Shown in pieces: positions 20,173 to 36,575 of a stretch of 64,000 nt of DNA. The notes beneath the pieces are model-generated. The model saw only the letters and a program-made list of their open reading frames with translations, was not told the DNA's origin and ran no database searches. The DNA lies in assembly GCA_017470145.1 (NCBI GenBank), contig JAFUFB010000022.1:124001-188000 (forward strand), read 5' to 3'. Source of the DNA: Clostridia bacterium (GTDB lineage Bacteria > Bacillota > Clostridia > Christensenellales > Aristaeellaceae). The position numbers and the translations under genes are program-made. Numbering within the stretch: the stretch's first letter is position 1; the number at the start of each line of letters is the position of its first letter.

Positions 20173-20247
20173 AAAAAAGGCGAAGGAACCAAAACAGAGG
20201 CTCCCTTGCCTTCAAAAATATGTTATCACCCCCGGGGGAAAAGTCAA
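20173..20247 (-). promoter_or_regulatory. pyrG leader: promoter, A1/G4 hexaloop hairpin and overlapping terminator
   Basis: Read on the minus strand. Promoter TTGACT (20242-20247), 16-nt spacer, TAACAT (20220-20225). Eight nt later comes AGGC-AAGGGA-GCCT (20198-20211), a 4-bp stem with a hexaloop having A at 1 and G at 4. The same 5' arm (AAGGCAAGG) can instead pair with CCTTCGCCTT to form a terminator with a T6 tract (20173-20178) and an inner GGAGCC/GGTTCC stem. The two folds exclude each other. This matches the leaders of glnA, amt, dapL and asnB. Confidence 0.75.
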
Positions 20248-20281
20248 GGGCCCTGTGATTGTTTTTTAACTGTATTTGCCA

Positions 20282-20360
20282 TTGACAGCGGCCCGACATG
20301 GGGGTATCATACGCGACGAAAGGCAAGGGTGTCCTGGACGGGATCGCTTGCCTCTTTTTT
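20282..20360 (+). promoter_or_regulatory. glnA leader: promoter, A1/G4 hexaloop hairpin and overlapping terminator
   Basis: TTGACA (20282-20287), 17-nt spacer, TATCAT (20305-20310); expected start near 20317. Then AGGC-AAGGGT-GTCCT (20321-20335), hexaloop A1/G4, with a weaker stem (one G-U and a bulge). The terminator pairs GGCAAG (20322-20327) with CTTGCC (20347-20352), followed by TCTTTTTT. The glnA RBS lies just after it, so read-through is needed for glnA expression. Confidence 0.78.
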
Positions 20361-20383
20361 ATTTCACAGGGGAGGGAAAGAAC

Positions 20384-21718
20384 ATGAGCAAGTACACGAA
20401 GGAAGATATTATCCGCATGGTGCGGGAGGATGACGTGGAGTTCATCCGGATGCAGTTTACCGACATTTTCGGCCAGCTGAAGAACGTGGCCATCACCGCC
20501 AGCCAGATTGAGAAGGCGGTGGAGAACCAGATCATGATCGACGGCAGCTCCATCGAGGGCTTTGTCCGCATTCAGGAGTCGGATCAGTATCTATGGCCGG
20601 ATCTGGATTCCTATGCGGTGTTGCCCTGGCGGCCCCAGCATGGCAAGGTGGCCCGGCTGATCTGCGACGTGCACAATCCGGACGGCACCCCCTTCGTGGG
20701 CGATCCCCGGGGGACGCTGAAGCGGGCGCTGAAGAAGGCGGCGGAGATGGGATATTCCTTCAATGTGGGGCCGGAATGTGAGTTCTTCCTTTTCCAGACG
20801 GATGAGAAGGGCTTGCCCACCACGGAAACCGCGGATCAGGCGGGATACTTCGATCTGGGCCCCCTGGACCATGGGGAAAGCACCCGGCGGGAAATTTGCC
20901 TGGCCTTGGAGCAGATGGGCTTCGAAATCGAGGCGTCCCATCACGAGGTGGCGGCGGGGCAGCATGAAATCGACTTTAAATATGCTGACGCCCTGACCTC
21001 GGCGGATCATATCATGACCTTCAAGCTGGCGGTGAAATCCCTGGCGCAGAAGAATGGCCTCCATGCCACCTTCATGCCCAAGCCGGTTTTCGGCATCAAC
21101 GGCAGCGGCATGCATACCAATATGTCCCTGTTTGACCGGGAAGGCCGGAACATCTTTGCGGATCCTTCCGACAAACCGGGGCTGAGCAAGGAGGCCTACA
21201 GCTTCATCGCCGGCATCCTGACCCACATGCGGGCCATGACGGCGGTGACCAATCCCCTGGTGAACAGCTATAAGCGGCTGGTGCCGGGATACGAGGCCCC
21301 CTGCTACCTGGCCTGGAGCGCCAGCAACCGCTCCGCGCTGATCCGGATTCCGGCGGCCCGGGGCCAGTCCACCCGGGTGGAGCTGCGGTGCCCGGACCCT
21401 GCCTGCAATCCGTATTTGGAGCTGGCGGTATGCCTGGCGGCAGGCTTGGATGGCATTGAAAAGGGTATGACTCCGCCGGAGGAGATTACGGAAAACATCT
21501 TCGCCATGGACGAGAAAACCCGGGAAAGCAAGGGGATTCAGAGCCTGCCCGGCTCCCTGAAGGAAGCGGTGGACCTGATGCTGGAGGATCAGCTGATCTG
21601 CGACACCCTGGGCGACCATGTGGTGACCCAGTACAGCGAAGGCAAATATCGGGAGTGGGACGAGTATCGGACCACCGTCAGCGATTGGGAGCTGAAAAAG
21701 TATCTGACGGTGTATTGA
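20384..21718 (+). CDS. glnA: Glutamine synthetase, type I (short alpha form)
   Basis: Makes glutamine from glutamate, ammonium and ATP; dodecamer in the cytosol. The 444-residue protein starts MSKYTKEDIIRMVRED at an ATG after GGGGAGGG; the longer frame from 20276 crosses the promoter and terminator and is rejected. Motifs: DGSSIEGF, metal-site GPECEFFLF, HHEVAAGQHEID, the ATP-site KPVFGINGSGMHTNMS, the glutamate-flap NPLVNSYKRLVPGYEAP, and RIPAARGQSTRVELRCPDP. The adenylylation region of the long beta form is absent, so control is expected through expression and feedback. It follows an attenuator-like leader, and an ANTAR regulator gene lies 64 bp downstream. Confidence 0.97.
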   Translation: MSKYTKEDIIRMVREDDVEFIRMQFTDIFGQLKNVAITASQIEKAVENQIMIDGSSIEGFVRIQESDQYLWPDLDSYAVLPWRPQHGKVARLICDVHNPDGTPFVGDPRGTLKRALKKAAEMGYSFNVGPECEFFLFQTDEKGLPTTETADQAGYFDLGPLDHGESTRREICLALEQMGFEIEASHHEVAAGQHEIDFKYADALTSADHIMTFKLAVKSLAQKNGLHATFMPKPVFGINGSGMHTNMSLFDREGRNIFADPSDKPGLSKEAYSFIAGILTHMRAMTAVTNPLVNSYKRLVPGYEAPCYLAWSASNRSALIRIPAARGQSTRVELRCPDPACNPYLELAVCLAAGLDGIEKGMTPPEEITENIFAMDEKTRESKGIQSLPGSLKEAVDLMLEDQLICDTLGDHVVTQYSEGKYREWDEYRTTVSDWELKKYLTVY

Positions 21719-21782
21719 TGAATGGTGGATGATTAACAAGCCCCGCGTAGAAGTTTTCATCAAGAGAGGGAGGTGAGGCCCC

Positions 21783-22328
21783 ATGGCCCGGATCATCGTG
21801 GCTTTTCCGGAACAGGAGGTCAATCGGAAGATTGCCGCCGTGCTGGAAAGTGCAGGATATGAGGTGTTTCGTACCTGCGTGACGGGAAACGAGGTCATGC
21901 GGGCCTTCACCCTTTGCCAGGACGGGGTGTTGATCTGCGGGGTCTGGTTTCCGGATCGAACGGCGGATACCCTAGCCTGGGACTTGGGGGAACAGGCGGT
22001 GATCCTGGTGATTGGCAAACCGGATCAAATTGTCCACTGTGAGCACCCGAGAATCTTTCGACGAGCTATTCCGGTAAATCGGGCGGAGCTGCTGTCCGCG
22101 GTGGATATGTTGCTGCAGCTGCACGATCAGCGCATGCCCCGCCGGGAGGGGGAGCAGAAGGAGCTGGTGGCCCGGGCGAAGGAGAAGCTGCAAACGGAAT
22201 ACGGCATGACGGAGCCCGAGGCGCACCACGCGCTGCAAAGATATGCCATGGCCCATGGGCTCAAGATGGCGGACTGCGCCAGAATGGTGCTGAGTGAAAC
22301 GGAGGGACGGTCTTTTTCGTTTCAATGA
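21783..22328 (+). CDS. ANTAR-domain transcription antiterminator with degenerate receiver domain
   Basis: A 181-residue protein, RBS GGGAGGTGAGG. Residues about 3-115 have a CheY-like fold, but the phospho-acceptor position is Gly53 (LICGVWFPDRT), the acidic pair near the N-terminus is absent (IIVAFPEQ), and the conserved Lys is replaced (FRRAIP). It is therefore a pseudo-receiver. Residues about 122-172 form an ANTAR three-helix RNA-binding domain (RAKEKLQTEYGMTEPEAHHA, then LQRYAMAHGLKMADCARMVL). ANTAR proteins such as NasR, AmiR and EutV bind A1/G4 hexaloop hairpins and stop terminators from forming. Matching leaders precede pyrG, glnA, amt, dapL and asnB here. The last codons and the stop lie inside a dispersed repeat (22295-22355). 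Confidence 0.88.
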   Translation: MARIIVAFPEQEVNRKIAAVLESAGYEVFRTCVTGNEVMRAFTLCQDGVLICGVWFPDRTADTLAWDLGEQAVILVIGKPDQIVHCEHPRIFRRAIPVNRAELLSAVDMLLQLHDQRMPRREGEQKELVARAKEKLQTEYGMTEPEAHHALQRYAMAHGLKMADCARMVLSETEGRSFSFQ

Positions 22329-22355
22329 AACGAAAAAGACCGTCCCCGTGTTTCA
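22295..22355. repeat. Dispersed repeat (family 2), inverted pair
   Basis: Two arms, TGAAACGGAGGGACGGTC... (22295-22324) and its near-complement TGAAACGAAAAAGACCGTCC... (22326-22355), 26 of 30 positions complementary, one central base. The TGA of the right arm is the stop codon of the ANTAR gene. The dyad could form a strong hairpin before gltB. Confidence 0.85.
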
Positions 22356-22373
22356 TGAAGGAGGTAAAACGGG

Positions 22374-36326: not shown

Positions 36327-36360
36327 TTTTTCATTCCCCGTTTTCTTTTTGCGTACTTTG

Positions 36361-36408
36361 CTGAATTCGATATCACTGAAATCATTTTCACTGAAATTAA
36401 ATTCAGCT
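36361..36408 (-). promoter_or_regulatory. Repeat cluster between promoter and start of the DUF234 gene
   Basis: On the minus strand, TTTCAGTGA occurs twice at a 15-nt period, flanked by GCTGAATT and AATTCAGC, which are inverted to each other. Position right after the -10 box suits an operator or an RNA element. Confidence 0.5.
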
Positions 36409-36409
36409 A

Positions 36410-36438
36410 ATTATAATCACTCTGATACCGTATGTCAA
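36410..36438 (-). promoter_or_regulatory. Consensus promoter of the DUF234 gene
   Basis: Minus strand: TTGACA (36433-36438), 17-nt spacer, TATAAT (36410-36415). Both hexamers are perfect. Confidence 0.85.
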
Positions 36439-36441
36439 TAC

Positions 36442-36471
36442 TGAAACGGAGGGACGGTCTTTTTCGCTTCA
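36442..36471. repeat. Dispersed repeat (family 2), single unit
   Basis: TGAAACGGAGGGACGGTCTT then TTTCGCTTCA, 30 bp, between the DUF234 promoter and the asnB leader. The gap 36327-36684 otherwise holds the two promoters and the asnB leader. Confidence 0.8.
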
Positions 36472-36500
36472 TAAATACAACAGGAGTACAGTTTATCCCA

Positions 36501-36575
36501 TTGACATGGGCAATTCGTCGGTGATAGTATTCAGGGCGAAAGGCAAGGGAGCCTGTTTGTTTCCCTTGCCTTTTT
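36501..36575 (+). promoter_or_regulatory. asnB leader: promoter, A1/G4 hexaloop hairpin and overlapping terminator
   Basis: TTGACA (36501-36506), 18-nt spacer, TAGTAT (36525-36530). Hairpin AGGC-AAGGGA-GCCT (36541-36554), hexaloop A1/G4. Terminator: GGCAAGGG (36542-36549) with CCCTTGCC (36563-36570), then TTTTT. The start codon is 110 nt further on, leaving an unusual 109-nt stretch in which I see no structure. Confidence 0.8.

What the first reader, a model, noticed from the sequence alone, without database searches (positions are those of the whole stretch)
20173..36575. A five-gene ANTAR-type antitermination regulon for glutamine and ammonium use
Five leaders (pyrG, glnA, amt-PII, dapL, asnB) share one design: TTGAC(A/T), 16-18 nt, a -10 box, then about 8-17 nt later a 4-bp hairpin with hexaloop AAGGG(A/T), whose 5' arm also builds an intrinsic terminator. 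A at loop position 1 and G at position 4 is the recognition rule known for ANTAR proteins. An ANTAR protein gene lies directly after glnA. Four of the five genes make, import or spend glutamine or ammonium. The amt copy changes its stem bases (GCGC/GTGC) yet keeps loop, pairing and terminator overlap, a covariation sign of real function. This is a self-contained regulatory system in one locus.
Basis: partly seen in the sequence, partly recalled or inferred. Interest (0 to 1): 0.92.

Follow-up and report, generated by a model that had tools for sequence, protein, structure and literature searches.

The report
One-hairpin RNA switches for nitrogen genes
Five genes in this gut-type Clostridia genome, most of them for importing, making or spending ammonium and glutamine, are preceded by the same tiny RNA hairpin sequence overlapping a predicted transcription stop signal; an RNA-binding ANTAR protein encoded beside one of them likely holds the stop signal open, and it would do so on a single hairpin where described switches of this type use two.

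Summary
Five leaders (pyrG, glnA, amt-PII, dapL, asnB) share a promoter-like sequence, one hexaloop hairpin with A at loop position 1 and G at 4, and an overlapping terminator. The 2.45 Mb genome holds exactly these five pattern matches (reversed-pattern control 0) and one ANTAR gene, after glnA. Relatives support the ANTAR link. In close relatives 113 of 117 comparable leaders keep the hairpin. Across the class, 53 of 56 genomes with a strong leader match have an ANTAR gene, against 133 of 315 without one. Stems covary in near, order and class samples, and 37 of 43 leaders in the best-scoring class loci precede GS, glutamate synthase, ammonium transporter or CTP synthase genes. Published ANTAR targets are two tandem hairpins, and deleting the first abolishes induction; here the predicted promoter leaves room for only one, near the 5' end of the transcript (0 of 113 leaders have a second before it). 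I read this as a widespread one-hairpin variant of ANTAR antitermination for nitrogen assimilation in Clostridia. Start sites, protein binding and read-through are untested; four class genomes with convincing leaders lack a detectable ANTAR gene.

The parts
20220..20247 (-). predicted pyrG promoter: TTGACT, 16 nt, TAACAT
20198..20211 (-). pyrG leader hairpin AGGC[AAGGGA]GCCT
20173..20212 (-). pyrG leader terminator overlapping the hairpin, -19.5 kcal/mol, z -3.97
18535..20148 (-). pyrG, CTP synthase (glutamine-using)
20282..20310 (+). predicted glnA promoter: TTGACA, 17 nt, TATCAT; its -35 box lies 34 bp from that of pyrG, back to back
20322..20333 (+). glnA leader hairpin GGC[AAGGGT]GTC
20321..20360 (+). 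glnA leader terminator, -17.9 kcal/mol, z -2.81
20384..21718 (+). glnA, glutamine synthetase
21783..22328 (+). ANTAR protein (NitR-like): receiver-like fold without phospho-acceptor Asp, then ANTAR domain at residues 124-170; likely regulator
22374..26690 (+). gltB, glutamate synthase large subunit, downstream of glnA and the ANTAR gene on the same strand
26753..26781 (+). predicted amt promoter: TTGACA, 17 nt, TAGAAT
26799..26812 (+). amt leader hairpin GCGC[AAGGGT]GTGC
26796..26836 (+). amt leader terminator, -24.3 kcal/mol, z -4.53
26870..28576 (+). amt fused to a P-II domain (ammonium transporter)
30701..30730 (+). predicted dapL promoter: TTGACA, 18 nt, TAGTAT
30741..30754 (+). dapL leader hairpin AGGC[AAGGGA]GCCT
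30738..30775 (+). dapL leader terminator, -22.0 kcal/mol, z -5.17
30797..32002 (+). dapL, LL-diaminopimelate aminotransferase (TIGR03542, 474 bits, cut-off 364.7)
36501..36530 (+). predicted asnB promoter: TTGACA, 18 nt, TAGTAT
36541..36554 (+). asnB leader hairpin AGGC[AAGGGA]GCCT
36538..36575 (+). asnB leader terminator, -21.6 kcal/mol, z -5.12
36667..38265 (+). asnB, glutamine-using asparagine synthase (PRK09431, 605 bits, cut-off 499)

Best explanation
Each of the five leaders carries, 8-17 nt after a predicted promoter, one small hexaloop hairpin whose 5' arm overlaps a predicted intrinsic terminator, and the ANTAR protein encoded after glnA likely binds that single hairpin, keeps the terminator from forming and so would raise expression when glutamine or ammonium is short. 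Shown: the sequence design, its covariation, its recurrence from near relatives to the class, its co-occurrence with ANTAR genes, and the nitrogen genes downstream. Predicted: start sites 6-8 nt after the -10 box, so that the hairpin begins within about 10 nt of the transcript's 5' end and no upstream P1 hairpin exists; default termination, because the terminator is 14-19 kcal/mol more stable than the fold of the 5' piece alone. Inferred: binding by the ANTAR protein; its direction (NitR of Clostridium saccharobutylicum is reported to induce GS/GOGAT genes under nitrogen limitation); and a signal other than phosphorylation, because the receiver-like domain lacks the phospho-acceptor site. A partner protein such as glutamine synthetase or PII, in the manner of AmiC-AmiR, is my guess. 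pyrG and asnB, and in relatives glmS and gltB, spend glutamine, so the regulon would raise capacity for importing, making and using glutamine when it is scarce.
For: Own genome: 5 pattern hits, control 0, one ANTAR gene. Close relatives: of 120 promoter+terminator candidates found without asking for a hairpin, 3 were set aside; 113 of the remaining 117 have a C-G-closed hexaloop hairpin: A1 in 109, A2 in 113, G4 in 113; core stem start 11-13 nt after -10 in 78 of 113 and 17-19 nt in 29 (27 of these amt). Genus genomes: R1 hits in 38 of 45, and 13 of 13 of the most complete; of the 37 genus genomes searched both ways, 29 of 29 with the ANTAR orthologue have an R1 hit, against 2 of 8 without it. 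Covariation score 0.394 vs at most 0.096 when slid (101 rows), 0.691 vs 0.221 (26 rows, 24 distinct), 0.779 vs 0.238 (38 rows). RNAalifold, unguided, chose this hairpin as consensus. Order: 23 of 25 leader-positive genomes have ANTAR vs 147 of 371 leader-negative. Class: 53 of 56 vs 133 of 315 at E<=0.001, 98 of 110 vs 88 of 261 at E<=0.01. At least 29 class genomes have both on one contig 1.9-8.5 kb apart (picked by eye from capped listings). Targets: GS-III, GOGAT amidotransferase, amt, glnA, pyrG or gltB for 37 of 43 leaders in the 29 best-scoring class loci besides the window's. Protein: Foldseek's top four hits are Rv1626 and EutV, RNA-bound and free; EutV residues K149, E160 and M172 are kept in all 26 aligned proteins. 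NasR SELEX gave a C:G closing pair with A1 and G4 (PMC7496416, passages).
Against: No start site, binding or termination data. P1 is required for EutV action (PMC3369931, passages), and NasR binds a lone P2 about 12-fold more weakly (PMC7496416), so one hairpin should be a poor target for a classical ANTAR protein. Not all EutV contact residues are kept: N173, R175 and R177 align with A, G and K here and K143 with E; Y164 is His. 12 of 110 leader-positive class genomes lack ANTAR; 4 of them (G468, G700, G685, G464) have convincing leaders in assemblies 96-99% complete. 88 ANTAR-positive class genomes have no R2 hit. Five of 23 order leaders precede genes not seen to be nitrogen genes. Loop A1 is G in 4 of 113. 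Alone, the 5' piece prefers a tetraloop variant in glnA and amt. Selection: one search asked for a C-G closing pair and similarity to AAGGGN (4 of 117 failed); the promoter boxes were required by the scans; the order and class alignments were chosen by the loop motif.
Confidence: 0.85

Rival explanations
1. Classical dual-hairpin ANTAR leaders: the true start sites lie further upstream and a P1 hairpin was missed.
For: Characterised ANTAR targets have two hairpins (PMC3369931, PMC8164766, passages). Start sites here are predicted only, and the promoter boxes were required by the scan.
Against: 0 of 113 leaders have a second A1/G4 hexaloop between -10 and the hairpin; 3 of 113 in the stretch from 60 nt upstream of the -10 end to the hairpin, below the shuffle mean of 4.6. 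Unselected signs of a real promoter: the nearly invariant G of an extended -10 (column 22) and a tight distance to the hairpin. The pyrG and glnA promoters are back to back, as are pairs in relatives. In class leaders the hairpin starts as little as 5-6 nt after -10. No known dual leader was run as a positive control of the scan.
Confidence: 0.07
2. The hairpin is recognised by some other factor (another RNA-binding protein or a ligand-sensing RNA), and the ANTAR gene merely travels with nitrogen genes.
For: 4 convincing leader-bearing class genomes without detectable ANTAR; not all EutV contact residues are kept.
Against: C:G closing pair, hexaloop, A1 and G4 are the very features found for NasR and EutV. 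Co-occurrence 53 of 56 at E<=0.001. No Rfam family reaches its gathering score, and the weak matches are chance-level, mostly microRNA families. The hairpin is too small for a usual aptamer (inference).
Confidence: 0.06
3. Ordinary terminators whose 5' arms happen to be similar, without regulation.
For: The 5' arm is shared by hairpin and terminator, so its conservation alone proves nothing.
Against: The 3' arm of the small hairpin covaries with the 5' arm in three samples; loop positions are nearly fixed; a terminator directly after the promoter of such genes needs an escape route (inference).
Confidence: 0.02

Closest known systems
NitR / glnA-nitR-gltAB of Clostridium saccharobutylicum (passage in PMC6316151, citing Stutz et al. 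2007, not read)
   Same: An ANTAR protein linked to GS/GOGAT genes and said to act by antitermination under nitrogen limitation.
   Different: I had no NitR sequence or leader to compare; the order glnA-nitR-gltAB is recalled. The extension to pyrG, amt-PII, dapL and asnB and the one-hairpin target are not in the passages I saw.
EutV / eut leaders of Enterococcus faecalis (PMC3369931, PMC8934654, passages)
   Same: ANTAR domain with part of the G4-contact residues kept; hexaloop with A1 and G4; hairpin overlapping a terminator.
   Different: EutV needs P1 plus P2 and phosphorylation by EutW; here one hairpin and no phospho-acceptor. The EutV structure paper asks why two hairpins are needed when the dimer grips one.
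NasR / nasF leader of Klebsiella oxytoca (PMC7496416, passages)
   Same: SELEX consensus: C:G closing pair, A1, G4.
   Different: Two hairpins needed for full affinity; NIT sensor domain.
Dual-hairpin nitrogen leaders predicted in bacteria such as Desulfotomaculum acetoxidans (PMC3369931, passages)
   Same: Predicted upstream of P-II, ammonium transporter, glutamine and glutamate synthase genes.
   Different: Predicted with a dual-hairpin model, which would not be expected to find one-hairpin leaders.

Membership tests
ANTAR proteins (PF03861) | ANTAR domain above the curated cut-off | tested here: met
   45.7 bits, cut-off 27.3
ANTAR proteins (PF03861) | Receiver-like plus ANTAR fold as in Rv1626 and EutV | tested here: met
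   Foldseek top four hits, E 1.5e-10 to 4.2e-9; TM 0.53-0.58 and rmsd 9-13 A over the full length, so the two domains sit differently
ANTAR proteins (PF03861) | EutV RNA-contact residues | tested here: inconclusive
   K149, E160, M172 kept; R142 is Lys; Y164 is His; K143, N173, R175 not kept; R177 is Lys (numbering offset of 2 inferred)
Two-component ANTAR response regulators (EutV type) | Receiver with acidic pair, phospho-acceptor Asp and Lys | tested here: not met
   No Asp at the EutV Asp54 position; acidic pair and Lys also absent in the alignments
ANTAR target RNAs (dual hairpin) | Hexaloop with A1 and G4, at least 3 bp | tested here: met
   5 of 5 window leaders; A1 in 109 and G4 in 113 of 113 leaders of close relatives, window included
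ANTAR target RNAs (dual hairpin) | A hairpin overlaps an intrinsic terminator | tested here: met
   5 of 5
ANTAR target RNAs (dual hairpin) | Two tandem hairpins, linker 2-25 nt | tested here: not met
   0 of 113 have a second hexaloop between -10 and the hairpin, given the predicted promoters
ANTAR target RNAs (dual hairpin) | Binding by the ANTAR protein | not testable with these tools
   needs a bench assay
NitR system of Clostridium saccharobutylicum | glnA, then ANTAR gene, then glutamate synthase gene | tested here: met
   window 20384-26690; the reference order itself is recalled
Rfam families, including the glnA glutamine riboswitch | Match at gathering score | tested here: not met
   none in the window; below gathering, no hit on a leader at E up to 5 in the locus; in 13 related loci 9 hits at E up to 1, all below gathering, two microRNA-family ones overlapping leader regions

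The most novel reading that the evidence does not exclude
A one-hairpin form of ANTAR antitermination, with the antiterminator hairpin at the first nucleotides of the transcript and a pseudo-receiver ANTAR protein, is the general nitrogen-assimilation switch of a large part of the Clostridia, controlling GS-I or GS-III, GOGAT, ammonium transport and glutamine-using enzymes; P1 is dispensable when the antiterminator is the first thing transcribed.
Probability: 0.7. Interest if true: 0.85.

Novelty: new variant of a known kind. Interest (0 to 1): 0.75.

Why it matters
The dual hairpin is treated as the general ANTAR target, yet the RNA-bound EutV structure shows a dimer gripping one hairpin and leaves open why two are needed. 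A natural, widespread one-hairpin class makes that question directly testable. It also suggests how many gut and rumen Clostridia may control ammonium assimilation, and it gives a search model (promoter plus one hexaloop) for leaders that dual-hairpin searches would not be expected to match.

Tried and rejected
Rejected: a link between the shorter linker of the window's ANTAR protein and the one-hairpin target. ANTAR proteins next to one-hairpin leaders in other families have a linker of normal length in most cases (L245 is another short one). Rejected: G090 as an in-genome contrast between dual and single leaders; its R2 hit is weak and no convincing dual leader was found there. A search of 30 ANTAR loci for dual leaders gave one unconvincing pair, so I have no positive control for dual detection and cannot say what share of ANTAR targets is single. 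A loose pattern without the -10 box was too unspecific (controls as high as hits). The nearest other-family glnA leaders (L166, L169, L171) showed no clear dual motif by eye. The two order-level R1 hits without ANTAR (L191, L193) show no such hairpin by eye; of the 12 other-family R1 genomes with ANTAR, the scan finds the hairpin in 11 (not in G162, L241). Of the 12 class genomes with an R2 hit but no ANTAR, one search shows 4 convincing leaders, 1 AT-rich stem without a terminator that I could see, 3 hits that I recognise from memory as T-box leader cores, and 4 where no A1/G4 hexaloop hairpin was printed; one search stopped with an index error near its end and was not repeated. In one search, 1 of 37 entries (L268) shows a hexaloop upstream, because the script picked a later hairpin. 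Papers: passages only of PMC3369931, PMC8934654, PMC8164766, PMC7496416, PMC6316151, PMC4676874 and PMC2864571; part 1 of 2 of the text of PMC3369936. That a one-hairpin ANTAR target is not in print rests only on the searches in an open-licence library.
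Full report
Check of the observation. Reading the window confirms five leaders of one design upstream of pyrG (minus strand), glnA, amt-PII, dapL and asnB: TTGAC(A/T), 16-18 nt, a -10 box, then 8-17 nt later a 3-4 bp hairpin with loop AAGGG(A/T), overlapping a terminator. The five terminators fold at -17.9 to -24.3 kcal/mol (z -2.8 to -5.2). The 5' pieces alone fold at -2.4 to -5.7; in pyrG, dapL and asnB the best fold is the hexaloop hairpin, in glnA and amt a tetraloop variant in the same place. 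The pattern occurs exactly five times in the 2.45 Mb genome, all here, and the reversed pattern never. The genome holds one ANTAR match, directly after glnA. It is 83.7% complete, so members may be missing.

Close relatives. The ANTAR orthologue was found in 29 of 37 genomes of the genus, own included, and in 80 named loci (the best of 96), rumen and gut MAGs labelled Clostridia, Clostridiales, Christensenella or Christensenellaceae for the most part. I scanned the window and 100 loci (20 regions of genus genomes and these 80; 1.56 Mb; identical leaders counted once) for promoters followed closely by a terminator, without asking for a hairpin. That gave 120 candidates; by downstream gene: glnA 50, amt-PII 28, dapL 15, asnB 12, glmS 7, pyrG 1, gltB 1, other 6. 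Of the six, three were set aside (L083, L084, L150) and three kept: L075, whose gene is a glutamate synthase small subunit, and L155 and L156, amt-like leaders at contig ends. When the most GC-rich hexaloop is taken, 94 of 115 have A1 and G4. Looking for a C-G-closed hexaloop of at least 3 bp that resembles AAGGGN, 113 of 117 have one; two glnA leaders (L082, L156) carry the loop with a broken pair, and two glmS leaders (L147, L149) lack the motif. Loop position 1 is A in 109 and G in 4, position 2 is A in all, position 4 is G in all; these counts are partly selected. In 45 genus genomes the model R1 has hits in 38, and in 13 of 13 of the most complete. In the 37 genomes searched both ways, 29 of 29 with the ANTAR orthologue have a hit, against 2 of 8 without (G005 and G024, 70 and 78% complete).

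Covariation. On 101 distinct 24-nt windows the stem scores 0.394, against at most 0.096 when the partner is slid; the third pair is GC in 71, CG in 28 and GU in 2; the second is GU 52, GC 39, AU 10. Below the three core pairs lies an often mismatched position and then a CA/TG pairing. RNAalifold, run on the promoter-to-terminator alignment without guidance, returned this hairpin as the consensus. Selecting on at least 3 bp favours pairing, but only 4 of 117 were lost that way.

One hairpin, not two. Published ANTAR targets are two tandem hairpins with A1/G4 hexaloops; deleting P1 abolishes EutV induction (PMC3369931, passages), and NasR binds P2 alone at about 12 uM against about 1 uM for both (PMC7496416, passages). 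Here 0 of 113 leaders have a second such hairpin between the -10 box and the hairpin, and 3 of 113 have one in the stretch from 60 nt upstream of the -10 end to the hairpin, where shuffles give 4.6; between the hairpin and the U run it is 3 of 113 against 1.2. In class leaders the hairpin starts as little as 5-6 nt after the -10 box, at the first transcribed bases if start sites are usual. The pyrG and glnA promoters stand back to back, as do many pairs in relatives, which leaves no room upstream. The promoter boxes were required by the scans; unselected support is a nearly invariant G of an extended -10 and the tight spacing. I had no known dual leader to run as a positive control.

Order. 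In 396 genomes of the order, R1 hits 25; 23 of these have an ANTAR gene, against 147 of 371 without a hit (Fisher p = 1.7e-7). Leaders of other families show other stems with the same loop logic: GGGC[AAAGGA]GTCC, CGAC[AAAGGC]GTCG, ACAGC[AAGGGC]GCTGT, GGGC[AACGGA]GTCC (which asked for A1 and G4); covariation 0.691 against 0.221 slid. Of 23 such leaders, 18 precede genes that I read as GS-III, a glutamate synthase amidotransferase subunit, pyrG, glnA or amt (examples of the first three families checked). The other five do not: L235 and L239 (a protein without a known family in the one checked), L242 and L243 (repeat proteins) and L238 (contig end).

Class. A second model, R2, made from promoter plus hairpin only, was run over 371 genomes of the class and compared with PF03861 in the same genomes. 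At E<=0.001, 53 of 56 leader-positive genomes have ANTAR against 133 of 315 leader-negative (p = 1.7e-14); at E<=0.01, 98 of 110 against 88 of 261 (p = 4e-24); at E<=0.0001, 16 of 16. Model E-values are rough, and a stricter filter was used for large sets. At least 29 genomes have both on one contig 1.9-8.5 kb apart; I picked these pairs by eye from capped listings, and in others, such as G451, both lie on one contig but about 211 kb apart. In the 29 best-scoring loci besides the window's, 43 leaders were found with the loop motif; 37 precede GS-III, a GOGAT amidotransferase, amt, glnA, pyrG or gltB by BLAST; of the other six, four were identified: AsnA, SAICAR synthetase, a CobB/CobQ-like amidotransferase and an ATP synthase subunit. 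Stems of 38 distinct class leaders covary (0.779 against 0.238 slid). In a phylum sample 7 of 269 genomes have a hit at E<=0.001, own included, five of them outside the class (not compared with ANTAR), so the design seems mainly one of this class.

Results against the reading. Twelve class genomes have an R2 hit but no ANTAR above threshold, and a relaxed search finds none over the cut-off. Four of them (G468, G700, G685, G464; 96-99% complete, 70-200 contigs) have convincing leaders; the gene may lie in a gap, be too diverged, or be absent. The other eight look like weak or false matches. 88 ANTAR-positive genomes have no R2 hit; they may use dual leaders or weaker matches, which R2 cannot find, since it contains the promoter.

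The protein. A model at pLDDT 87.6 matches Rv1626 and EutV best, though with the two domains placed differently. By profile alignment (numbering offset inferred), of the EutV residues tested for RNA binding (PMC8934654, passages) three are kept in all 26 aligned proteins (K149 as K133, E160 as E144, M172 as M156); R142 is Lys, Y164 is an invariant His, R177 is Lys, and K143, N173 and R175 are not kept in the window's protein. The phospho-acceptor Asp, the acidic pair and the Lys are missing, as reported for AmiR, so phosphorylation is unlikely as the signal. Direction of control is taken from NitR, reported to induce GS/GOGAT genes on nitrogen limitation (PMC6316151, passage).

Verdict. The surprise lies elsewhere: a one-hairpin target near the transcript's 5' end, spread through Clostridia and tied to nitrogen assimilation. 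It works like ANTAR antitermination but fails the two-hairpin test that defines ANTAR target RNAs, so I file it as a new variant. Binding, start sites and read-through remain to be shown.

Noticed in passing
22295-22355: A 30-nt inverted repeat (90% complementary) spans the stop codon of the ANTAR gene and appears to supply its last residues; its core GGGACGGTCTTTTTCG occurs 7 times in the window with up to 2 mismatches (0.06 expected). It looks like a small mobile repeat between the ANTAR gene and gltB.
   Followed up: partly
26788-26840; L098 and L072 amt leaders: In amt leaders bases before the terminator (TTCCAAC) can pair with bases after the U run (GTTGGGAA), with changed but matching bases in some relatives (by eye), as if the read-through RNA formed a long 5' stem.
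   Followed up: no
L248, L249, L250, L251, L256, L264: Some class leaders carry a second hexaloop hairpin after the first terminator, suggesting two attenuators in series (by eye).
   Followed up: no
L084:3306-5947: A leader of the same design precedes a protein with a pyruvate phosphate dikinase N-terminal domain in a genus relative; weaker R1 hits in other genus genomes may be the same group.
   Followed up: partly
window 28785-30638: glmS has no such leader in the window, but 5 of 7 glmS leaders found in relatives carry the hairpin.
   Followed up: partly
amt leaders in L102, L144, L150, L151, L162, L164: In a subgroup the amt terminator is longer and holds an extra inner hairpin (by eye).
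   Followed up: no
ANTAR protein residue 32: A cysteine is invariant in all 26 aligned NitR-like proteins; a redox or metal role is possible but untested.
   Followed up: no
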